Positions 53,233 to 64,000 of a DNA stretch of 64,000 bases are shown here, piece after piece. A program made the translations under genes and the position numbers. The DNA is from Bradyrhizobium canariense (GTDB taxonomy: Bacteria > Pseudomonadota > Alphaproteobacteria > Rhizobiales > Xanthobacteraceae), in the NCBI RefSeq assembly GCF_900105125.1, contig NZ_LT629750.1, positions 3,906,001 to 3,970,000 of the forward strand. Reading direction: 5' to 3'. The first letter of the stretch is position 1; each line of letters begins with the position of its first letter. The notes under the pieces were generated by a model. It ran no database searches. It saw only the letters and a list, made by a program, of their open reading frames with translations, and was not told the origin of the DNA.

Positions 53233-53730
53233 ATGAATCTCTCCATCAGCCTTACTGTCAACGGCGTGCGGCGGAACATCGAGCTGGAAGACCCCCGTGT
53301 CACGCTGCTCGATCTGCTTCGTGAGCGTCTTCACCTGACAGGTACCAAGAAAGGCTGCGACCGCGGCCAATGCGGCGCCTGCACGGTCCTGGTCGACGGC
53401 CGGCGGATCAATTCGTGCCTGGCGTTGGCCGTCAGCCATGACGGCGCCGAAGTTCTCACGATCGAGGGCATCACGGGCGGAGACGAACTGCATCCGGTCC
53501 AGGCGGCTTTCATCGCTCATGACGGCTTCCAGTGCGGCTTCTGCACGCCCGGCCAGATCATGAGCGCGATTGGCCTGATCCAGGAGGGACAGGCCGGCGA
53601 TGACCCCGAACGCATTCGCGAAGCCATGAGTGGAAACCTCTGCCGATGCGGAGCCTATTCCGGGATCACCGACGCGTTGCTGGACGTCCAGAAAAATCTC
53701 GTTGAAGCCGACCAAAGGCGCTCCGCATGA
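53233..53730 (+). CDS. Molybdenum hydroxylase, 2x[2Fe-2S] small subunit (PaoA/YagT-like)
   Basis: 165 residues. The plant-type cluster is bound by Cys42, Cys47, Cys50 and Cys62 (GCDRGQCGACTVLVDGRRINSC); the second by Cys101, Cys104, Cys137 and Cys139 (QCGFCTPGQ, GNLCRCGAYSG). It moves electrons from the molybdenum centre to the FAD subunit. Unlike E. coli PaoA it has no Tat leader: it starts MNLSISLTVNGVRRN. Its stop overlaps the next gene by four bases. Confidence 0.95.
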   Translation: MNLSISLTVNGVRRNIELEDPRVTLLDLLRERLHLTGTKKGCDRGQCGACTVLVDGRRINSCLALAVSHDGAEVLTIEGITGGDELHPVQAAFIAHDGFQCGFCTPGQIMSAIGLIQEGQAGDDPERIREAMSGNLCRCGAYSGITDALLDVQKNLVEADQRRSA

Positions 53731-54785
53731 AGAACTTCGACTATGTCAGGCCGGCAACCATTTCCGAGGCCATCGCGGCCGCCGCTGAGCCGGGCGCTGT
53801 CTATCTGGCGGCAGGCACCAATCTGCTCGACCTGATGAAGGGCGGCATCACCGGTCCGAGTCGCTTGGTCGATGTCACGCATTTGCCCGGGCTCGATCGC
53901 ACCGAACATCTGCCCGATGGCGGCGTCCGCATCGGCGCGCTCGTTCGCAATGCCGATCTCGCGCACGATCCGGATTTCGCCCGGTCCTATCCGGCGATTG
54001 CCGAGGCGTTTTTGTCGGGCGCATCCGCCCAGCTTCGCAATGCCGCGACCGTCGGCGGCAATCTGCTACAGCGCACGCGCTGCAGTTATTTCTATGATGT
54101 CGCCAGCGCCTGCAACAAACGCCAGCCGGGCGCGGGCTGCGACGCCCGCGAAGGCGAGAACCGATTGCACGCCGTGCTCGGCTGGAGCGAGGCCTGCATC
54201 GCCACCCACCCATCGGATTTCTGCGTACCGCTCGTCGCTCTCGACGCTGTTGTCGAGATCGAGGGCAGAACCGGCCGGCGCGAGGTCGCCCTCGAAGCCC
54301 TTCACCGTCTGCCGGGCGATACGCCCGAGCAAGAAAACGCACTAGAGCCCGGCGATCTGATCGTCGCCCTGCGGCTGCCCTGTGAAGCCCGCTCGTTCTC
54401 GGCGCATGCACGCTATCTGAAACTCCGCGAACGCACCTCCTACGCCTTCGCCGTGGTGTCCGCCGCCGCGGCGCTGCGGATCGAAGGCGGCGCCATCTGG
54501 GACGCGCGGCTCGCCCTCGGCGGCGTTGCCGCCAAACCATGGCGGGCCCGCTCGGCGGAGAAGATCCTGGCAGGCAGCAATCCCGGAAACGCCATCTTTC
54601 GTGCTGCGGCGGAAGCGGCGCTCGCCGACGCGAAACCCTCTGGACAAAATCAGTTCAAGATCGAGCTGGCGCGGCGGATTCTCGTGCGCGCCCTGACGCT
54701 CGCGGCAGTTGGCACGCCCAAGCGCATTCCAGCTCTTCCCGCCTCCCCTCTCTCATCTGCACGCGGAGTGTTGCATGACGCCTGA
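53727..54785 (+). CDS. Molybdenum hydroxylase, FAD subunit with extra 4Fe-4S loop (PaoB/YagS-like)
   Basis: 352 residues, CO dehydrogenase flavoprotein family. FAD-binding motifs are YLAAGTNLLDLMKGG and AATVGGNLLQRTRC. Cys119, Cys129, Cys138 and Cys157 (TRCSYFYDVASACNKRQPGAGC and EACIATHPSDF) match the extra 4Fe-4S ligands of PaoB, which places the enzyme in the PaoABC/YagTSR group. It overlaps the large subunit gene by 11 bases. Confidence 0.95.
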   Translation: MKNFDYVRPATISEAIAAAAEPGAVYLAAGTNLLDLMKGGITGPSRLVDVTHLPGLDRTEHLPDGGVRIGALVRNADLAHDPDFARSYPAIAEAFLSGASAQLRNAATVGGNLLQRTRCSYFYDVASACNKRQPGAGCDAREGENRLHAVLGWSEACIATHPSDFCVPLVALDAVVEIEGRTGRREVALEALHRLPGDTPEQENALEPGDLIVALRLPCEARSFSAHARYLKLRERTSYAFAVVSAAAALRIEGGAIWDARLALGGVAAKPWRARSAEKILAGSNPGNAIFRAAAEAALADAKPSGQNQFKIELARRILVRALTLAAVGTPKRIPALPASPLSSARGVLHDA

Positions 54786-57045
54786 GATCAGCCTCACTCA
54801 ATCACCTTCCCATCTCCGGCACGGCTCGAGCATCGGGCAGCCGCTGACGCGCCGCGACGGCGTCCTGAAGGTCAAGGGAGAAGCCCGCTACGCGGCAGAT
54901 AACCATCCGCCCGGAATGCTCTACGCCGTTCTCGCGGTCAGCAGCATCGCGCGCGGCCGCGTGACCTTCCTTGACGTGCAGACGGCCAGGAGCCATCCCG
55001 GCGTGGTCGACGTCATGACCTCCACGAACAAGCCGCCGCTCGCGGAGGATCCGGACGCCAAGACAAATCCCTTCATGTTCCGGCTCGATCTCCTGCAGAA
55101 CGACCTGGTGCGTTATGCGAACCAGCCGATCGCGGTGGTGATCGCCCGGACGCTGGAGGCTGCGACGGAAGGCGCGGCGCTGTTGTCGCCACATTACGAA
55201 ACGCAGCCTGCCCGCGTGGGTCTCGACGCGAGCGAAAGTTTCGTGCCAGCCGCGGTCGGTGTCGGTAATCCATCCGAAGTGCGGCGTGGTGATGTGGAAG
55301 CAGGTCTTGCTGCGGCGTCGAAGCGCATCGATGCGACCTACGAGACATCCATCCAATACCACAACGCGATAGAGCCTCACGCGATCGTCGCGGCATGGGA
55401 CGGCGATGCGCTGTCCATCGATACGCCAAGCCAGGGTCTCGCGATGGCGCAGGGCCGGATCGCCGGGTTGTTCGGCATCTCGCCGGAGAAAATCCATATC
55501 CGCAGCCCGTTCCTGGGAGGCGGCTTCGGTTCGAAGGGCCTGATCTCGGGACCGCAGATCCTTGGCATCATGGCGGCGCGACTGGTCGGCCAACCGGTCA
55601 AACTCGTGCTGCGCCGTGAACAAATGTACGGCCCCGTCGGCCACCGCGCGTCCACCCGCCAGAGGATTCGCATTGGCGCCGACGTTGACGGTTCGCTGAC
55701 CGCGATCGATCATCACGCAAAAACTGCGTCGAGCTCCTTTGACGATTTCTTCGAGCCGGCCGCCGACGCCTCGCATACGCTTTATGCGAGCCCTGCCATC
55801 GCCACGTCGCACGAGGCGGTCCGGACTGACACTGGCACGCCTCTGTTCATGCGGGCTCCCGGTGAGGCAACCGGATCGATCGCGCTGGAGAGTGCGATCG
55901 ACGAAGCGGCATCGGCCTGCGGGATGGACCCGCTCGCCTTCCGCATCAGGAATTATGCCGAAGTCGAGCCGATTTCCGGCAAGTCGTTTTCCTCGAAAGC
56001 CCTGCGCGAATGCTACGCGCAAGGCGCCGATCGCTTCGGCTGGTCGCGACGGCCACTGGCGCCACGACAGGTGCGTGACGACGCAGGTCTTCTGGTCGGT
56101 TGGGGCATGGGCACGGCAACGTTTCCAGCGCTGATGTTCCAGGCTGAGGCGCGTGCGGTGGTGCGAAGCGACGGGTCCGGCCTGATGGAGACCGGCGCGC
56201 ACGACATGGGTCAGGGCGCCTGGACCGCGTTCGCGCAAATTGCGGCGGATGGCCTGGGGCTCGACCTCGAACAGACAGAGTTCAGGGCCGGTACGTCCGA
56301 CCTGCCGGATGCGGGCATCGCCGGCGGTTCAGCCCACACCGCCACGGCCGGCATGGCGATTCACAATGCCGGCGCCGCGGTCATCGCCAAACTCGCGGAT
56401 CTCGCGACAGGCGATGAGCGTTCGCCGTTGTTCGGTGCTGGTAACGCCGGGGTCATCGCGCACAGCGGCCGCCTGTTTCGTCGTGACGACGAAATGCGGA
56501 GCGAGAGCTATGCCGATATCCTCGGCCGTGCCGGCTTGGCGCAGATCGAGGCCCGCGGCAAAGGCGCCGCGGATCCTGCGGCGCAATCGACCTACGCCAT
56601 GCATGCCCACGGCGCGGTGTTCGCGGAGGTCAAGGTCGACCCGGATCTCGGTCAGATCCGCGTCACCCGCCTGGTCGGGGCTTTCGCTGCGGGGCGGGTC
56701 ATCAACCCCCGTCTTGTGCGCAGTCAGATCTTTGGCGGCATGATCTGGGGCATGTCATTTGCGCTGCATGAGCAGGCTGTCATGGACCATCGCTCCGGAC
56801 GGACGCTGAACGCCAACCTCGCCGAGTATCATTTTCCGGTGAATGCCGACGTGCCGTCGCTGGAAGCGCTGATGATCGAAGAGCACGACCTTCATGTGAA
56901 CGCGCTGGGCATCAAGGGCGTCGGTGAAATTGGAATCACGGGCTCGGCTGGCGCCGTCGCAAACGCGGTCTGGCACGCCACGGGAATCCGGGTCCGGCGT
57001 TTTCCGATCAGGATCGAAGATCTTCTGGCGCAAGCTCCACACTAA
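54775..57045 (+). CDS. Molybdenum hydroxylase, Moco-binding large subunit (PaoC/YagR-like)
   Basis: 756 residues from the ATG at 54775 (GGAG upstream). Moco-binding blocks include SPFLGGGFGSKG, FMRAPGEATGSIALESAIDEAA, DMGQGAWTAFAQIAADGLG, AGGSAHTATAGMAI and the catalytic Glu in KGVGEIGITGSAGAVANAVWHATG. The active-site loop lacks the AYxCSFR of CO dehydrogenase, so an aldehyde or N-heterocycle substrate is likely. FAD and Fe-S subunits precede it in one overlapping operon. Assembly should need an XdhC-like chaperone, which is not in the window. Confidence 0.94.
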   Translation: MTPEISLTQSPSHLRHGSSIGQPLTRRDGVLKVKGEARYAADNHPPGMLYAVLAVSSIARGRVTFLDVQTARSHPGVVDVMTSTNKPPLAEDPDAKTNPFMFRLDLLQNDLVRYANQPIAVVIARTLEAATEGAALLSPHYETQPARVGLDASESFVPAAVGVGNPSEVRRGDVEAGLAAASKRIDATYETSIQYHNAIEPHAIVAAWDGDALSIDTPSQGLAMAQGRIAGLFGISPEKIHIRSPFLGGGFGSKGLISGPQILGIMAARLVGQPVKLVLRREQMYGPVGHRASTRQRIRIGADVDGSLTAIDHHAKTASSSFDDFFEPAADASHTLYASPAIATSHEAVRTDTGTPLFMRAPGEATGSIALESAIDEAASACGMDPLAFRIRNYAEVEPISGKSFSSKALRECYAQGADRFGWSRRPLAPRQVRDDAGLLVGWGMGTATFPALMFQAEARAVVRSDGSGLMETGAHDMGQGAWTAFAQIAADGLGLDLEQTEFRAGTSDLPDAGIAGGSAHTATAGMAIHNAGAAVIAKLADLATGDERSPLFGAGNAGVIAHSGRLFRRDDEMRSESYADILGRAGLAQIEARGKGAADPAAQSTYAMHAHGAVFAEVKVDPDLGQIRVTRLVGAFAAGRVINPRLVRSQIFGGMIWGMSFALHEQAVMDHRSGRTLNANLAEYHFPVNADVPSLEALMIEEHDLHVNALGIKGVGEIGITGSAGAVANAVWHATGIRVRRFPIRIEDLLAQAPH

Positions 57046-58161: not shown

Positions 58162-60924
58162 GTGGCTGAATACCGATCCATGACCCGGACCGAATCGTTG
58201 GCGCCGTCGACGGGCAGCTGGGAAAGTACGATTCTCACCACCGACATCGTCGGCAGCACCGCCCTGCTCCGCCGCTATCCCAACGACATCATGAGCGCGA
58301 TGGATCTGCACGACCAGATCCTGCACGCCGCCATCCGCCGCCGTTCCGGTGATCCGTTCAGGCACACCGGGGACGGTGTGCTCGCGATCTTCGAGCGGCC
58401 GCTGGACGCAGTGCTGGCGGCGATCGATGCGCTGCGCGAGATGCACAGCGTCGCCTGGGGTCCGACCGGACGGCTTCAACTCCGTTTTGGCATCCATACC
58501 GGCATGACGCGGGCACGGGGCGAGACCGACTTCTTCGGTCCCGCTTTGCCCACGGCGACACGGTTGCAGGGCGCCGCCAACGCCGATCAAATCCTGCTGT
58601 CGGGCGTCACGGTAGAGCGGCTCGCGAACGACCGCTTCCAGAAGCCGTTCAAACTGTCCGACCTTGGCGAACATCACTTCAAGGGCATCGAACCGATCCG
58701 CGTCTACCAGGTCTCCACAGCCGACCTGCCGGCCGACTTCCCGCCGATCGGCGGTAAGCGCGAGACCGCCAGCGGCAATCTGCCCGCCAATCTAAGTTCG
58801 TTCCTCGGCCGCGAGCGGGAGCTGGAAGAGCTTGGCCAAATCGCCGACGAGTCCAGGTTGCTAACGCTCATCGGTCCCGGCGGAATCGGCAAGACGCGGC
58901 TCGCCATCGAGTTCGCCCGGTCGCTGGAATCCTCCTTCCCCGAAGGAGCGTGGCTGGTCGATCTGTCGGCGCTGGAACGCGGCAGCGAGGTCTGGCCCGC
59001 GATCGCGGAGACCCTGCTGATTCCGCTGCTCCCCGGCGTGGAGTGGCGCGTTCAGGTCCTCGAGCGGCTATACGACGCCCGAGCGATCCTGCTGATGGAC
59101 AATTGCGAGCATGTGCTCGACCCGATCGCCGACGCGGTCACCGAACTGGGTTCGGCCTGTGGCAAGCTGTTGGTGATCAACACCAGCCGGCGCACGCTTG
59201 GAGTGGAAGGCGAGGCCCTCTACGAAGTCTCCGCGCTGGATTCCGGTTCGCAGGACGGCTCCGGGCAATCCGCGGCCGTTCGCCTGTTCGTGGAGCGCGG
59301 CCGGCTGGCCGACCGGCGGTTTCAGCCGGGCCCGGACGATCTCGTTCTCATCCAGAGGATTTGCGCCAATCTCGATTACATTCCGCTCGCCATCGAGATC
59401 GCAGCCGGTCAGCTGCGCCGATTGACCCTGGCGAGCATCGAAAACGGGGTGACAAAACCCCTCGATCTTCACGCGAGAAATTTCCGGCGGCGGACCGGCC
59501 GCCAGCAAACGCTTCGGCAGACCCTGGAATGGTCATACGACCTCCTCGACCTGAACGGCCGCCAGGTTTTGCAGCGGCTGTCCGTATTCTCCGGTCCCTT
59601 CCATGAAGAACAGGCCCTGGCTGTCTGTGCGGGAGATATGTCCAGCGAAGCCGATATTGTGCGCGGGATCGACGAATTGGTGGAATCCTCGCTGCTGTCA
59701 CGGGACGCGGGCGGTCCTCAATTGCTGAGAATGCTCCAAACCGTGCAAGCCCTTGGAAGGGAAAAGCTCGATCAGAGCGGGGTGCTGCAGACTGTCGAAA
59801 CCCGGCACGGCGAGGTCTATGCGAACCGCTGCCGGGAGCTGAGCCAACGATTCGCAAGCGTTAATGAAGCCAAGGCTGCCAATGCGATTTACGATGAACT
59901 GTCCAATCTTCGTGCAGCCTTCGAGCGGGCTTTAACGCGCGATCTGAAATTGGCGGCGGACCTCGCAGCGCCCCTGTTCCTGTTCAACTACTCGCACCGT
60001 GGCGCGGAAACCGGAAGTTGGTACGAGCGGATCATGGCGCGGCCGGGCGCCGATCAGCTCGAACAGGCGCCGATCCTGCTCGCCGGGGCCGCCGGTCACG
60101 CCTTCCATGACGAGGGGGATCAGCAGAAGGCGATCGCTTTCATCGAACGGGGTTTCCGGATCGAAGCCGCCGGGTCGCGGTCCAGCCAGGGCTGGCTTGC
60201 CGGCGTCGCCGGTCAGATGGATCAGTGGTCCGGCAACACGATAAAATGCGTCGAGCACCATGCGACAGCAGTCGAGCAGGCGCGAAGCGCAGGCAACGTC
60301 GCCTGCGAGATCATGTCCCTGAGCATGGCGGCTTTCGTAAAGGCGCGGGTGGGAGATCTCGACGGCGCCAGCGAATTGGTCAGGGAAGTCACTCAGGTTG
60401 GGCAGACGACGACGCAGCCGACCCTGATGGGCTACGTTTATTATGCCCGAGGCGGTGTAGAAAGTTTCAAGGACCCCAACCGGGCAATCGATGAGTACTG
60501 GACGTCGGTGGATTGGGCGAACATGGCGGGCAACCATCTGGGGGCTCAACGGGTCAAACAGCTGATCGCCGATCTGCAAGCCGCGCAGGCCGAGCCGACC
60601 GAAGCCCTGGCGATTTATGTTCGCACGCTGATTGATCTTCCGAACCACGGGGCCGCCTTCTACACCTGGCTGACGATCCGGTCCGTGCTGTTGCCGCTGG
60701 CTCAGCTCGAAGCGGATGAAGATCTTGCCGTTTTGGCGGGCGCGCTGACGGCCTCACCGTTGAAGCTCGACAGATCGGCCAGGGAAGCTGTCAACAAAGC
60801 GAAGGAAAGATTGGGTAGTATTGCATTCGAGTTGGCGGCGGCCCGCGGATCTAAGTTTGACCTCGCCGAGGCCCGCACGTACATCGTCGATCTCTGGGGA
60901 AGCATGGAACGGCAGTCGAACTAA
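58162..60924 (+). CDS. Cyclase-domain / STAND ATPase / helical-repeat signalling protein
   Basis: 920 residues from a GTG with GGGG ten bases upstream (an ATG at 58180 lacks a site). Residues about 20-190 form a class III nucleotide cyclase domain: metal ligands Asp28 (TTDIVGST) and Asp71 (HTGDG) and substrate-binding Asp123 are present, but the purine-specifying Lys is Arg67 and the transition-state Asn is Pro130 (GPALPTATRL), with Arg134 kept. A STAND/NB-ARC-like ATPase follows (P-loop LIGPGGIGKTRLA near 240; Walker B ILLMDNCEHV). From about 500 the protein is helical with TPR-like repeats. There is no C-terminal HTH, unlike related mycobacterial regulators. It lies 59 bases before a peroxidase operon. 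Confidence 0.9.
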   Translation: MAEYRSMTRTESLAPSTGSWESTILTTDIVGSTALLRRYPNDIMSAMDLHDQILHAAIRRRSGDPFRHTGDGVLAIFERPLDAVLAAIDALREMHSVAWGPTGRLQLRFGIHTGMTRARGETDFFGPALPTATRLQGAANADQILLSGVTVERLANDRFQKPFKLSDLGEHHFKGIEPIRVYQVSTADLPADFPPIGGKRETASGNLPANLSSFLGRERELEELGQIADESRLLTLIGPGGIGKTRLAIEFARSLESSFPEGAWLVDLSALERGSEVWPAIAETLLIPLLPGVEWRVQVLERLYDARAILLMDNCEHVLDPIADAVTELGSACGKLLVINTSRRTLGVEGEALYEVSALDSGSQDGSGQSAAVRLFVERGRLADRRFQPGPDDLVLIQRICANLDYIPLAIEIAAGQLRRLTLASIENGVTKPLDLHARNFRRRTGRQQTLRQTLEWSYDLLDLNGRQVLQRLSVFSGPFHEEQALAVCAGDMSSEADIVRGIDELVESSLLSRDAGGPQLLRMLQTVQALGREKLDQSGVLQTVETRHGEVYANRCRELSQRFASVNEAKAANAIYDELSNLRAAFERALTRDLKLAADLAAPLFLFNYSHRGAETGSWYERIMARPGADQLEQAPILLAGAAGHAFHDEGDQQKAIAFIERGFRIEAAGSRSSQGWLAGVAGQMDQWSGNTIKCVEHHATAVEQARSAGNVACEIMSLSMAAFVKARVGDLDGASELVREVTQVGQTTTQPTLMGYVYYARGGVESFKDPNRAIDEYWTSVDWANMAGNHLGAQRVKQLIADLQAAQAEPTEALAIYVRTLIDLPNHGAAFYTWLTIRSVLLPLAQLEADEDLAVLAGALTASPLKLDRSAREAVNKAKERLGSIAFELAAARGSKFDLAEARTYIVDLWGSMERQSN

Positions 60925-60983
60925 GCCGAATCCGACTCACAACCCTGAGGAAGTGTGTTAGTCTGCACGCAATGGAGGGTGGC

Positions 60984-62033
60984 ATGGACGATATACCGGT
61001 GGCCCAGCGGCTTGTGGATGCCGTCATTTCCGATTTCCCGGATCACGCCGCTGGGACAAGGCCGGTTCATACCATCGGTATCGGCGTGGACGGTTATTTC
61101 GTGGCGTCAGATGTGGCGCGCACCTATTGCATCGCGGAGCACTTCCAGGGACAGCAGGTTGACGCATCGGTAAGATTCTCCAATGGATCGGGGAGTCCGG
61201 TTCAGCATGATGGCTGGAACGATGTCCGGGGAATGGCGACAAAATTCCATTTGAAAGACGGCGCTGCGACCGACCTGATCGCGATGACGCTGGGCGAATT
61301 CTTCTCGCGCACCGTCGACGATTTTTTCGCGTTCACCACGGCCGCGCGGCAGACGCCCGTCAAGAGGGAATCGCCGTGGCAGAAGTTTCTCGACATGCTG
61401 CAACTCAAGCAGCCTCTTCCCGACCCGTATCGGCGACAAACCGAGAGCGGCGATGCGGGCACGCTGGCTTACGCGAATGGCCATCGCTTCGCGCAGTTGG
61501 GCGTGTTCCAGGCCGGGATGATCGGCGCCCCCGTGAGCTATGCCCGCGCCACCTACCACGCCGTCCACACCTTCGTCGTGACCGGTCCTGACGGCATTCG
61601 CCGCAACGTTCGTTTTTCCTGGCAGCCTGTCGCCGGCGTTTGCACAACCGATCCTACCGCAGCCCCAGTCGACAAATACCTGCACCAGGAGCTCCGGGAC
61701 CGCCTCGAGCAGTGGCCGGCCCGCTTCATGCTGATGATGACGATCGGCGAAGCAGGCGATGCGATCGACGATCCCACCCAGCCCTGGCCCGCCAAGCGCC
61801 TCCGGGTCGTCATGGGCACGCTGACGCTTACTAAAGTCGCCGACGATCAGGCCGCCGCCGCCGAACACATCAGTTTCAATCCGTGCCGCCTCGGTCCCGG
61901 CATCGAACCTTCCGGCGATCCGATCCTGCATGCCCGCCGCGACGCTTATCAGGAATCATGCCAGAGGCGCGGCGGCAATTCATGTCCCCTCAGCGGAAAT
62001 TCCGCCAATGCCAGGTCAGCCAATGCCAAGTGA
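60984..62033 (+). CDS. Catalase-related haem peroxidase (SrpA-like)
   Basis: 349 residues from the ATG at 60984 with GGAGG perfectly placed. The short catalase fold has the distal His29 (RPVHTIGIGVDGYFVASD), FSNGSGSPVQHDGWNDVRGMATKFH, and the proximal RxxxY (Arg318 and Tyr322 in ARRDAYQES). The segment DLIAMTLGEFF replaces the GNN block that carries the distal Asn of true catalases, so peroxidase or oxygenase chemistry is more likely than dismutation. No signal peptide. Its stop overlaps the next gene. Confidence 0.88.
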   Translation: MDDIPVAQRLVDAVISDFPDHAAGTRPVHTIGIGVDGYFVASDVARTYCIAEHFQGQQVDASVRFSNGSGSPVQHDGWNDVRGMATKFHLKDGAATDLIAMTLGEFFSRTVDDFFAFTTAARQTPVKRESPWQKFLDMLQLKQPLPDPYRRQTESGDAGTLAYANGHRFAQLGVFQAGMIGAPVSYARATYHAVHTFVVTGPDGIRRNVRFSWQPVAGVCTTDPTAAPVDKYLHQELRDRLEQWPARFMLMMTIGEAGDAIDDPTQPWPAKRLRVVMGTLTLTKVADDQAAAAEHISFNPCRLGPGIEPSGDPILHARRDAYQESCQRRGGNSCPLSGNSANARSANAK

Positions 62034-62751
62034 GCCGCCAAGCGACCGAAGCATGCTGGATCGACTTGTCGATTGGCTACCCACCACCGGCCCGTTCAAG
62101 TTCATCGCAGCGCGCATTCTGGTGCCATTCTGGGCGTGGCGCACGCCGGTCAAGAAACTGCCCGGCGGTCCTCCTTTTTCCATCCAGCCGGGCGACAATT
62201 TGCAGCGCATGATGAACCTGGTCATGCCGCTGAAAGACAAGTCGGCGATCGGCCGCGCCGTGGCGGCGCTGGCGATCGCGCAGAACGTGGACGAGATCTA
62301 TGCCGGCCTGGACAATGTCGGCACCGTGCACTTTGCGCGCTTCGTCATCGTCGACAACAATATCTGCATGCTCTCCGTCTATGACGGGGACTTCACCAAC
62401 TACATCCGTGATTTCATCGCGACCATCGGCAGCGTGTTCGACGCCGTGGTGAAACTTGTCGAGGGGGGTGACGCCGTGATTCCTTCCGAGCACAACATCG
62501 AGAAATTCATCGACTGGGTGCATGCGCATGACATGTACCAGGTGCCGGATTTGGCCACGGGCATCCTGCGCGACCAGGAACAACTCAAGGGCGACACGGC
62601 CGAGTCAGGCAATGACGATCTGCGCCTGCTGCCGCGCGAGCTGATCCTCCAGCTCAATGTCAACACCAACGTATCGCTCGGCAGCGGTTACCGCGCCTAT
62701 CCCGGATATTCCGCGGCTCAGGTTCGCAAGCAGTTCGGGATCGGCTGGTGA
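62023..62751 (+). CDS. Unrecognised protein between two haem peroxidase genes
   Basis: 242 residues from the ATG at 62023, overlapping the catalase-like stop by 11 bases; ATGs at 62008 or further upstream are alternatives. The middle (VHFARFVIVDNNICMLSVYDGDFTNYIRDFIATIGSVFDAVVKLVEGG) looks like an alpha/beta ferredoxin-like domain related to the DyP/chlorite-dismutase fold, but no haem-binding His-x-x-x-Arg is evident. No membrane segments or signal. Its stop overlaps the DyP start as GTGA, so the proteins are probably made in fixed ratio and may form a complex. Confidence 0.7.
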   Translation: MPSEPPSDRSMLDRLVDWLPTTGPFKFIAARILVPFWAWRTPVKKLPGGPPFSIQPGDNLQRMMNLVMPLKDKSAIGRAVAALAIAQNVDEIYAGLDNVGTVHFARFVIVDNNICMLSVYDGDFTNYIRDFIATIGSVFDAVVKLVEGGDAVIPSEHNIEKFIDWVHAHDMYQVPDLATGILRDQEQLKGDTAESGNDDLRLLPRELILQLNVNTNVSLGSGYRAYPGYSAAQVRKQFGIGW

Positions 62752-64000
62752 GTACCGTGTTCAAACCCGCCGATGTGCAGGGCAACATCTTGCGCGGCTA
62801 CCGCAAGCCCCGCGTGCGCTATCTCATTCTCGAGATCACCGATCGCATCGCCGCCCGCCGCTGGCTCGCCGCCCGCACGTCCGGACGCGGCGACGTTCCT
62901 CAAATCACGACCGAAGAACCCTGGACCACCAAGCCGGAAACCTGTTTCAACATCGGCCTGACCTATGAGGGGCTGCGGGCGCTTGGCACCTCGCACGACT
63001 CCCTTGATATGTTCCCGACCGAGTTCAAGGAAGGGATGAATGCCCGCGCTGTGAAGCTCGGCGACGTCGGGCCGAGCGCGCCGGAGAACTGGCCGGATCC
63101 CTTCAAGGACTCTAAGCGGATCCATCTTATCGCGACGATCTACGCCGACGGGATCACGCAGCTCGACAGCGTGCAGCAGCGGGCGCTCGCCGGCGGAACG
63201 GGTCTTAACCTGCTCGGCCAACGCGATGGCTTTAATTTTAACGGCAACTACGTTCACTTCGGCTACCACGACAATATCTCGCAGCCGAAATTCGCCGAGA
63301 TTCACGACATCGACAACCTTTCGGACGCGCAGCCCGTGGCGCCGCTCGGCACCGTGTTGTTGGGATATCCGACTAATTTCGAAGGCTTGCTGTTCGCGGT
63401 TCCCCAACCCGAGCCGCTCGGATTGAATGGCAGCTTCAACGCGTTTCGGGTGCTCGAGCAGGACGTCGTCGGCTTCGAGGCCTATCTTTCGACCGCCGCG
63501 ACCTATTTGCTCGCCCACCCAAAGGTGGATGAATTGCTGCCGCCCGGCGCCGAAGCGAAGATCGGAAAGGGGCTTTCGCGTCACGCCGCCATGCGCGAAA
63601 TGGTCGCCGCCAACCTCTGCGGCCGCTGGCGCAACGGCGTGCCGCTGGCGCTGTCGCCCGACACCGACAATCCTTCGCCCCCGGTGGATCCGACCGATTT
63701 CGATTTCATCGGCGATTCCCGCTGCCCCTACGGCTCCCATATCCGGCGCAGCAACCCGCGGGGCGGGCAAATCGTGCAACGCGTTGCGAACCACAGCCGG
63801 CGCCTGGTCCGGCGTGGCATGCCCTATGGACCGGCCTACGATCCGGCCAATCCCGGCACCGAAGAACGCGGGCTGCTCGGCAATTTCATCGGGGCCAATC
63901 TCGGCGCCCAGTTCGAGGCCGTGTCCTGCGACTGGTTGAACCTGGGCCTGCAGGATCCAAGGATCACCGGGTCCAACGATCCCTTGGTCGGCGCCAACGA
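62748..64000 (+). CDS. DyP-type haem peroxidase (3' end outside window)
   Basis: 417 residues are visible from a GTG overlapping the previous stop. The start VFKPADVQGNILRGY is typical of class C/D DyP proteins. The catalytic Asp175 lies in HFGYHDNISQPKF, where the usual GxxDG reads GYHDN (Gly to Asn). The proximal haem His349 is in RVANHSRRLVRRGMPYGP. No Tat leader, so it is cytoplasmic or delivered with a partner. DyP enzymes oxidise dyes, lignin-like phenolics or Mn2+ with H2O2. The frame remains open at the window end. Confidence 0.9.
   Translation, partial: MSTVFKPADVQGNILRGYRKPRVRYLILEITDRIAARRWLAARTSGRGDVPQITTEEPWTTKPETCFNIGLTYEGLRALGTSHDSLDMFPTEFKEGMNARAVKLGDVGPSAPENWPDPFKDSKRIHLIATIYADGITQLDSVQQRALAGGTGLNLLGQRDGFNFNGNYVHFGYHDNISQPKFAEIHDIDNLSDAQPVAPLGTVLLGYPTNFEGLLFAVPQPEPLGLNGSFNAFRVLEQDVVGFEAYLSTAATYLLAHPKVDELLPPGAEAKIGKGLSRHAAMREMVAANLCGRWRNGVPLALSPDTDNPSPPVDPTDFDFIGDSRCPYGSHIRRSNPRGGQIVQRVANHSRRLVRRGMPYGPAYDPANPGTEERGLLGNFIGANLGAQFEAVSCDWLNLGLQDPRITGSNDPLVGAN

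What the first reader, a model, noticed from the sequence alone, without database searches (positions are those of the whole stretch)
58162..64000. Cyclase-STAND signalling protein heading an overlapping catalase-like / unknown / DyP operon
A large sensor-like ATPase lies 59 bases before three genes that overlap one another (11 bases, then GTGA). Two encode different haem peroxidase types and one is unrecognised. Overlap suggests fixed stoichiometry, and the unknown protein between two haem enzymes could be a scaffold, a haem or H2O2 handler, or a substrate adaptor. STAND ATPases with repeat tails also occur in stress and antiviral signalling, so an inducible oxidative response is plausible. 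The overlaps are seen; the joint function is inference.
Basis: partly seen in the sequence, partly recalled or inferred. Interest (0 to 1): 0.72.

Follow-up and report, generated by a model that had tools for sequence, protein, structure and literature searches.

The report
Hidden partner of dye-decolourising peroxidases
A protein of unknown function in a soil bacterium belongs to an undescribed family that sits beside, or is fused to, one branch of the puzzling dye-decolourising peroxidases, including one from a radiation-resistant bacterium that looked inactive when studied alone, so a missing partner can now be tested.

Summary
The four genes are real and placed as described: cyclase-STAND, catalase-like CAT, unknown UNK, DyP (which runs 151 bases past the window). 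In 25 GTDB contigs found with UNK alone, CAT precedes it in 25 of 25 and DyP follows in the 23 that reach far enough. In 398 sampled genomes of the phylum, the wider UNK family was found in 24; in 24 of 24 a class V-like DyP lies downstream within 1.5 kb or in the same chain. Conversely 28 of 32 such DyPs have UNK, against 0 of 30 other DyPs. UNK-bearing DyPs form one branch (80/91). Seven genomes fuse UNK and DyP, two of them shown with P450. Deinococcus radiodurans has UNK-DyP-catalase; its DyP, made alone, is inactive at physiological pH, and its authors speculate that other proteins may govern it. UNK matches no Pfam or NCBIfam family; its model has a ferredoxin-like core with a conserved His-Arg-Asp-Tyr set. 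STAND looks like a dedicated regulator (5 of 146 congeneric genomes, each directly before CAT-UNK). Most likely UNK is a partner subunit of one DyP clade, in haem-enzyme modules acting on organic, perhaps lipid, hydroperoxides. The partnership is strongly supported; substrate and mechanism are inference.

The parts
58162..60924 (+). STAND: class III cyclase-like domain (aa 23-184), P-loop AAA/NB-ARC-like region (about aa 214-330), TPR-like tail; proposed dedicated regulator
   Evidence: Orthologues 43-77% identical precede CAT in 6 other loci. 5 of 5 occurrences in 146 congeneric genomes, own included, precede CAT-UNK.
58228..58713 (+). cyclase-homology domain; both metal-site Asp kept, usual transition-state Asn position is Pro, so catalysis is doubtful
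   Evidence: PF00211 33.4 bits; alignment of 19 sequences. Roles of the residues are recalled knowledge.
60984..62033 (+). CAT: catalase-related haem protein (349 aa; alternative start 60972)
   Evidence: PF00199 E 1e-29. Nearest solved structure 3E4W/3E4Y. Distal His, proximal Tyr and the Arg before it 26 of 26; at the two columns facing the Asn-Asn of true catalases no row has Asn (Met 10, Thr 14, Ile 2; Thr 25, Ser 1).
62023..62751 (+). UNK: undescribed DyP-partner family protein, 242 aa
   Evidence: No Pfam family, no NCBIfam family above noise; 946 homologues at E<=1e-3, best 120 listed; DyP adjacent or fused in all sampled occurrences.
62206..62451 (+). ferredoxin-like alpha+beta core of UNK (aa 62-143)
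62329..62415 (+). conserved polar set of UNK: H103, R106, D121, Y127 (stretch shown: aa 103-131)
   Evidence: H103, R106, Y127 in 239 of 239 close rows and 16, 15, 17 of 17 distant rows; D121 238 of 239 and 15 of 17.
62748..64000 (+). DYP: class V-like dye-decolourising peroxidase (467 aa; stop lies outside the window, at equivalent position 64151)
   Evidence: PF21105; TIGR01413 67.8 bits, below its cut-off 100.5. Nearest solved structures 8RE3/8RE2, the D. radiodurans DyP. Asp 24 of 24, proximal His 24 of 24, distal Arg 23 of 24 with one gap.

Best explanation
UNK belongs to an undescribed family of partner proteins for one clade of class V-like DyP peroxidases. Shown by comparison: UNK and this DyP clade are inherited together, as neighbours, tandem copies or one fused chain. 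Inferred: UNK binds its DyP through a ferredoxin-like alpha+beta domain, and its conserved His-Arg-Asp-Tyr site shapes access of the peroxide or substrate to the haem, or handles the product. DyP alone would then be only part of the enzyme. In this operon the complex works with a catalase-related protein of the kind that acts on organic hydroperoxides rather than as a true catalase. The likely chemistry is making or converting organic, perhaps lipid, hydroperoxides, switched on by the dedicated cyclase-like STAND protein.
For: CAT-UNK-DyP order: CAT in 25 of 25 loci, DyP in the 23 of 25 whose contig reaches that far. Wider UNK family in 24 of 398 genomes, own included, with DyP on the same strand in 24 of 24; a further 10 of 10 loci (L036 and L038 are one gene). 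Reverse: 28 of 32 class V-like DyPs have UNK, 0 of 30 other DyPs do; the genome's other DyP (L098) has none. The 28 form one side of a branch, 80/91. Fusions: 1408- and 1530-aa chains with P450, UNK and DyP; five more open frames over 1400 aa hold UNK and DyP. UNK, DyP and catalase relative together in D. radiodurans, Acinetobacter, Rhodococcus and Rhizobium. The D. radiodurans protein is the crystallised one (1022.9 bits to 8RE3); expressed by itself in E. [quoted passage not shown] encapsulin, govern it (PMC10820274, abstract, sections 2.5 and 3.1). CAT is closest to 3E4W and has no Asn at the usual distal site. Context genes in single loci: patatin phospholipase plus separate P450 (L080), cholesterol-oxidase-like GMC enzyme plus hydrolases (L074), di-haem cytochrome c peroxidase family protein with weak matches to rubber dioxygenases (L043). 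Parallels in print, passages only: Nostoc 10S-dioxygenase with a separate catalase-related lyase (PMC13049297), fungal dioxygenase-P450 fusions (PMC11719350), coral AOS-LOX (PMC5617202).
Against: No experiment and no predicted complex; the one fused-chain model failed (pLDDT 35, six sequences). Four of 32 class V-like DyPs have no UNK. Catalase relatives were found in only 6 of 27 wide loci (23 of the 27 have UNK), and those six were seeds of that profile. Lipid-related neighbours are single cases, not a counted enrichment. Low activity of D. radiodurans DyP at neutral pH may be intrinsic: its authors explain it by a bound hydroxide and water, and activity appears at low pH; they call other DyPs inactive at physiological pH too. 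DR_A0145 and DR_A0146 both rise under UVC/vacuum (PMC5731708, passages), which also fits plain detoxification. Searches scored only a few candidates per genome (8, 4, 6), so UNK genes away from DyP could have been missed.
Confidence: 0.55

Rival explanations
1. Plain oxidative-stress operon: CAT and DyP both remove H2O2 or organic peroxides, UNK helps them fold or stay stable, and the STAND protein senses stress.
For: DR_A0145 (DyP) and DR_A0146 (called a catalase there) rise after UVC/vacuum in D. radiodurans (PMC5731708, passages). Peroxide-type haem residues are kept.
Against: CAT has no Asn at the usual distal site; P450 fusions, GMC oxidase, patatin and di-haem neighbours in single loci look biosynthetic or catabolic. 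D. radiodurans DyP cannot bind H2O2 at pH 7.5 (abstract).
Confidence: 0.2
2. UNK is an enzyme of its own, like cofactor-free monooxygenases, cyclases or isomerases of the dimeric alpha+beta-barrel fold, acting on the DyP product.
Confidence: 0.12
3. UNK is a haem-loading or maturation factor for class V DyPs.
For: Haem-degrading IsdG and MhuD are among the fold neighbours; a conserved His is available.
Against: Permanent fusion and tandem duplication of UNK with DyP are unusual for a loading factor; D. radiodurans DyP expressed by itself in E. coli has one haem per molecule in the crystal (PMC10820274, section 2.5).
Confidence: 0.1
4. The cyclase-STAND protein marks an antiviral or immune signalling unit with haem enzymes as effectors.
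For: STAND-like and TPR-like architecture.
Against: PADLOC gives one weak match, E 0.0072; 19 of the 25 loci show no such STAND gene upstream; three distant loci have other TPR regulators instead.
Confidence: 0.03

Closest known systems
Deinococcus radiodurans DyP (DR_A0145, PDB 8RE2/8RE3) and its neighbours
   Same: Nearest solved relative of this DyP. The gene in L153 encodes the crystallised protein; a UNK homologue (243 aa, 119.7 bits) lies one base upstream and a catalase family gene follows.
   Different: DrDyP has Met at the fifth GXXDG position, this one Asn; order UNK-DyP-CAT, not CAT-UNK-DyP. The paper names no neighbour gene in the parts seen (catalase 0, operon 0 occurrences); it speculates on interacting proteins and gives encapsulin as example.
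3E4W/3E4Y protein (deposited as 'Putative uncharacterized protein'; recalled as a mycobacterial catalase-related peroxidase) and coral catalase-related allene oxide synthase/hydroperoxide lyase
   Same: CAT aligns best with 3E4W over two stretches (126 bits); same size class; in the alignment both lack Asn at the usual distal site.
   Different: No lipoxygenase beside CAT; its partners are a DyP and UNK. Activity of CAT is untested.
Nostoc punctiforme 10S-DOX with catalase-related lyase; fungal DOX-P450 fusions
   Same: A haem oxygenase paired or fused with a second haem enzyme that converts the hydroperoxide (passages).
   Different: Those dioxygenases are discussed with the peroxidase-cyclooxygenase superfamily, not DyP (DyP 0 occurrences); no UNK-like partner in the passages read.
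Known DyP partners: EfeUO iron uptake, encapsulin
   Same: A DyP with dedicated partner genes (review PMC8197335, passages).
   Different: Unrelated partners; UNK does not appear in the passages read.

Membership tests
class V-like DyP peroxidase (DYP) | distal Asp of GXXDG, proximal His, distal Arg | tested here: met
   Asp 24 of 24, His 24 of 24, Arg 23 of 24 plus one gap
class V-like DyP peroxidase (DYP) | Gly at the fifth position of GXXDG | tested here: not met
   Asn 22 of 24, Ser 2 of 24; DrDyP, placed in class V by its authors, also departs here
class V-like DyP peroxidase (DYP) | groups with long class V DyPs, apart from class A/B | tested here: met
   nearest PDB chains are DrDyP and long fungal or bacterial DyPs; apart from three class A/B rows with 100/100
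true catalase | distal His and Asn, proximal Tyr | tested here: not met
   His and Tyr 26 of 26, but no Asn in 26 rows at either column facing the catalase Asn-Asn
catalase-related peroxidase (3E4W kind) | short catalase fold, closest sequence match | tested here: met
   best PDB match, 126 bits against 71 for the next; the name of the kind is recalled
catalase-related peroxidase (3E4W kind) | activity on organic or fatty-acid hydroperoxides | not testable with these tools
   needs an enzyme assay
dimeric alpha+beta barrel / ABM-like superfamily (UNK) | ferredoxin-like alpha+beta fold | tested here: inconclusive
STAND NTPase (STAND) | P-loop NTPase with sensor repeats | tested here: inconclusive
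   AAA_16, AAA_22, NB-ARC and TPR_12 all below gathering scores; P-loop GPGGIGKT present
class III nucleotide cyclase (STAND N-terminus) | full catalytic set | tested here: not met
   metal Asp kept, transition-state Asn position is Pro; residue roles recalled
known anti-phage systems | clear match to a PADLOC family | tested here: not met
   only mad8 at E 0.0072, 13.9 bits
UNK-DyP partnership (proposed here) | UNK adjacent or fused to a class V-like DyP | tested here: met
   24 of 24 forward, 28 of 32 reverse, 0 of 30 control

The most novel reading that the evidence does not exclude
One clade of class V DyPs is not a stand-alone peroxidase but the haem subunit of a two- or three-part oxygenase, completed by UNK and coupled, in a separate gene or the same chain, to a catalase-related enzyme or a P450. 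It would be a bacterial counterpart of fungal dioxygenase-P450 fusions and coral AOS-LOX, evolved on the DyP fold, and DyPs of this clade studied alone were studied without an essential partner.
Probability: 0.3. Interest if true: 0.88.

Novelty: new variant of a known kind. Interest (0 to 1): 0.7.

Why it matters
The natural role and substrates of DyP peroxidases remain unclear (said in the D. radiodurans study, PMC10820274; the review PMC8197335 lists only probable roles). An undescribed partner that accompanies nearly a whole DyP clade gives a direct test: add the partner and see whether a DyP inactive at neutral pH works, and on what. The link to catalase relatives and P450s points to specific hydroperoxide chemistry instead of dyes or lignin. 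It would also give a function-linked identity to many 'hypothetical proteins' (946 homologues at E<=1e-3 of this one subfamily).

Tried and rejected
Rejected: UNK as a random neighbour; antiviral STAND unit; a terminator or promoter separating STAND from the rest (weak test); STAND as a constant member (6 of the 25 loci have it upstream on the same strand; 11 of 25 have a different cyclase-STAND protein, 25-29% identical over about 260-340 aa, downstream on the other strand). Absence to tell: no DyP, chlorite dismutase or EfeB chain stood among the 50 rows; that is not evidence against kinship.

Led nowhere: the fused UNK-DyP chain model (pLDDT 35). Literature listings for a DyP-P450-oxylipin link (0 papers), for DyP with catalase or lipoxygenase in clusters, for gene neighbourhoods or partner proteins of class V DyPs and for D. 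radiodurans locus names did not show UNK described in titles or abstract starts; only open-licence papers are held and few were opened, so this is no proof that it is not in print. Terms for neighbours in PMC8395514 (SaDyP1) gave nothing of use.

Limits of counts: searches scored at most 8, 4 or 6 first-look candidates per genome, so counts of genomes are lower bounds. One search did not list the window's own DyP for G000 (one match, the other DyP), so it is not a census; its list of matches was also cut. The class V-like set of 32 was cut at 120 bits after seeing the list; the next separate gene scores 33.4 bits. 'Class A/B' for the 30 control loci (L083-L112, best TIGR01413 matches with loci) is my label. 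In one search one of the 28 positives (L120, same gene as L146) was in the enlarged profile; with the first profile it scored E 3e-3. The eight plasmid loci were picked from the 50 listed rows (74 records in all) for variety of phyla, not at random; L028 came. One search kept 238 of 242 proteins by length (190-265 aa), plus own; these are the best-listed homologues of two searches, not all of them.
Full report
WHAT IS THERE. The window lies in a single-contig genome of 7.84 Mb. Four genes follow one another on the + strand: STAND 58162-60924, CAT 60984-62033, UNK 62023-62751 and DYP from 62748. DYP ends 151 bases beyond the window. The next long gene, on the other strand, reads like a LysR-type regulator, so the operon probably ends with DYP. 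No + strand terminator-like site lies between STAND and CAT.

WHAT THE PROTEINS ARE. CAT belongs to the catalase superfamily (PF00199, E 1e-29), but its nearest solved relative is the short protein 3E4W/3E4Y (126 bits; next 71 bits, a catalase). I recall 3E4W as a catalase-related peroxidase of a mycobacterium; the entry says only 'putative uncharacterized protein'. In 26 of 26 aligned sequences CAT keeps the distal His, the proximal Tyr and the Arg before it. At the two columns facing the Asn-Asn of true catalases no row has Asn (facing). DYP is nearest to 8RE3/8RE2 (185 bits). It keeps Asp, proximal His and distal Arg, with Asn in place of the last Gly of GXXDG in 22 of 24 rows and Ser in 2. 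UNK matches no Pfam family, nothing above noise in NCBIfam, and no solved chain better than E 7. The distant UNK homologues tested also match no curated family above its cut-off.

UNK GOES WITH DyP: FORWARD TEST. A scan of GTDB contigs with UNK alone returned 25 loci. CAT lies directly upstream on the same strand in 25 of 25. DyP lies directly downstream in 23; the other two contigs (L021, L025) end inside UNK. A profile of 18 near and distant UNK sequences (A2) was then run over 398 genomes drawn evenly from the phylum: 24 genomes, own included, have a match (at most 8 candidates scored per genome). In 24 of 24 loci a DyP profile matches on the same strand, within 1.5 kb downstream or in the same open frame; in several (such as L060-L063) a further gene, sometimes a second UNK, lies between. 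The 10 loci from the search of 60 relatives, own left out, gave 10 of 10 (two of them are one gene).

REVERSE TEST AND CONTROL. A profile of these DyPs found 32 distinct genes at 120 bits or more in the same 398 genomes, own included (at most 4 candidates scored per genome); the next separate gene scores 33.4 bits. UNK lies beside or inside 28 of the 32. The four without it are in G223, G305, G350 (second gene) and G327 (second gene), also with wider flanks (L148, L149, L144, L145). Of the 30 loci fetched for the best TIGR01413 matches, which I take as class A/B DyPs, 0 have UNK and 0 have a catalase relative within about 1.5 kb; one, L098, is the other DyP of this genome. In a tree of the 32 plus three class A/B rows the 28 UNK-bearing DyPs form one side of a branch (80/91; 81% of 200 bootstrap trees), the four others and class A/B lying outside. 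The support is moderate.

FUSIONS AND VARIANTS. In G227 and G343 a single protein (1408 and 1530 aa) holds a P450 domain (PF00067, E 6.5e-10 and 1.9e-6), a clear UNK domain and DyP. Before the clear UNK domain, and split from it by a hydrophobic stretch, I read a second, weaker UNK-like copy; the profile gives it E 0.4 in G227 and nothing in G343. Five further genomes have open frames over 1400 aa with UNK and DyP (G112, G250, G253, G435, G167); they were not scanned for P450. Other loci have two UNK copies in one protein just before DyP (L053 and L057 by profile, L054, L065 and L067 partly by reading), two UNK genes in a row (L041, L080, L157) or one UNK gene with two domains (L039). Fusion of partners is classical evidence that they act together.

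DEINOCOCCUS AND OTHER PHYLA. On a D. radiodurans replicon a 'hypothetical protein' of 243 aa matches UNK (119.7 bits); one base separates it from the DyP gene, which is followed by a 'catalase family protein' (321.5 bits to my catalase profile). That DyP is the crystallised protein: 1022.9 bits to 8RE3 over residues 13-457. UNK, DyP and a catalase relative also stand together in Acinetobacter lwoffii, Rhodococcus koreensis and Rhizobium rosettiformans. Nostoc, Streptomyces, Granulicella and a Bradyrhizobium plasmid have UNK with DyP and no catalase match among the genes I tested there. All eight loci fetched have UNK; they were chosen for variety from 50 listed rows. DR_A0145 was cloned and expressed by itself in E. 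coli BL21 (PMC10820274, section 3.1). It is inactive at physiological pH because its haem is six-coordinate low-spin; [quoted passage not shown] encapsulin, govern it in vivo (section 2.5). The gene next door is a ready candidate; this is my inference. DR_A0145 and DR_A0146 (called a catalase there, and by its number the gene next to DR_A0145) are both reported raised after UVC/vacuum exposure (PMC5731708, passages).

THE STAND GENE. Orthologues 43-77% identical stand directly before CAT in 6 of the 25 loci, including a betaproteobacterial, an Acidiphilium and a Granulosicoccaceae MAG (two copies there). Searched on its own in 146 genomes of the genus at E<=1e-100, it occurs in 5, own included, and all 5 precede CAT and UNK (at most 6 candidates scored per genome). 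So it seems dedicated to the trio, though the trio does not need it. In 11 of the 25 loci a different cyclase-STAND protein lies downstream on the other strand. The cyclase-like domain keeps both metal Asp but has Pro at the usual transition-state Asn, so it may sense a nucleotide rather than make cAMP. Upstream of the P450 fusions stand TPR proteins with a cyclase domain (L073) or, by reading, a winged helix (L072 and the similar L075), again regulator-like.

WHAT IT MOST LIKELY DOES. Shown by comparison: UNK and one DyP clade form a lasting partnership. Likely: they form one enzyme. Inferred: the chemistry concerns organic, perhaps lipid, hydroperoxides, because CAT is of the catalase-related kind, because P450s are fused or adjacent in some loci, and because single loci carry a patatin phospholipase with a P450 (L080), a cholesterol-oxidase-like enzyme with hydrolases (L074), a di-haem cytochrome c peroxidase family protein with weak matches to rubber dioxygenases (L043), or a 3-hydroxyacyl-CoA dehydrogenase (L153, L158). 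Those neighbours are examples seen while reading loci, not a counted enrichment; other loci show none. A catalase relative was found in 6 of 27 wide loci, all six of them seeds of that profile. Parallels in print, seen as passages only: a Nostoc 10S-dioxygenase whose product can be converted by a separate catalase-related lyase (PMC13049297), fungal dioxygenase-P450 fusions (PMC11719350), coral catalase-related AOS or HPL fused to lipoxygenase (PMC5617202). Plain peroxide detoxification remains the main rival.

NOVELTY. DyPs, catalase-related proteins and STAND-like regulators are known. I found the UNK family, its tie to one DyP clade, and DyP-P450 fusion chains named in none of the listings nor in the passages and sections; the library holds open-licence papers only. 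I rate it a new variant of a known kind.

Noticed in passing
L154:5350-6378, L156:2971-3984, L146:5210-6217 (minus): A conserved unknown protein of 335-342 aa (57-67% identical between Nostoc, Streptomyces and genome G428, of the window's class) stands with a distinct UNK subtype and DyP; no Pfam match for the Streptomyces copy.
   Followed up: partly
L028:7878-9920: On a Gloeothece plasmid a short UNK protein and a DyP lie beside cyanobactin/TOMM-type genes (PatA/PatG protease, SagB dehydrogenase).
   Followed up: no
L040:3537-5036, L041:3072-4571: In two congeneric genomes UNK-DyP is followed by a protein with DUF4331 and a polyketide-cyclase/lipid-transport domain; the L040 copy was Pfam-scanned, L041 is alike by reading.
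   Followed up: no
L021:1030-6745: Two cyclase-STAND genes in tandem (43% and 48% identical to the window's) precede CAT-UNK in a Granulosicoccaceae MAG.
   Followed up: no
L163:4246-5261: In genome G506 the CAT gene is matched in two overlapping frames; a frameshift or an assembly error. Not mended.
   Followed up: no
window 53233-57045: Just upstream lies a separate set of iron-sulphur, FAD and molybdopterin subunits of the xanthine dehydrogenase/aldehyde oxidase family; the molybdopterin subunit was Pfam-scanned, the others are read from sequence.
   Followed up: no
L143:1-6500: Genome G167 has a 1599-aa open frame with UNK and DyP matches and, elsewhere (L078), a separate UNK-DyP pair next to a gene that reads like the di-haem one of L043.
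   Followed up: partly
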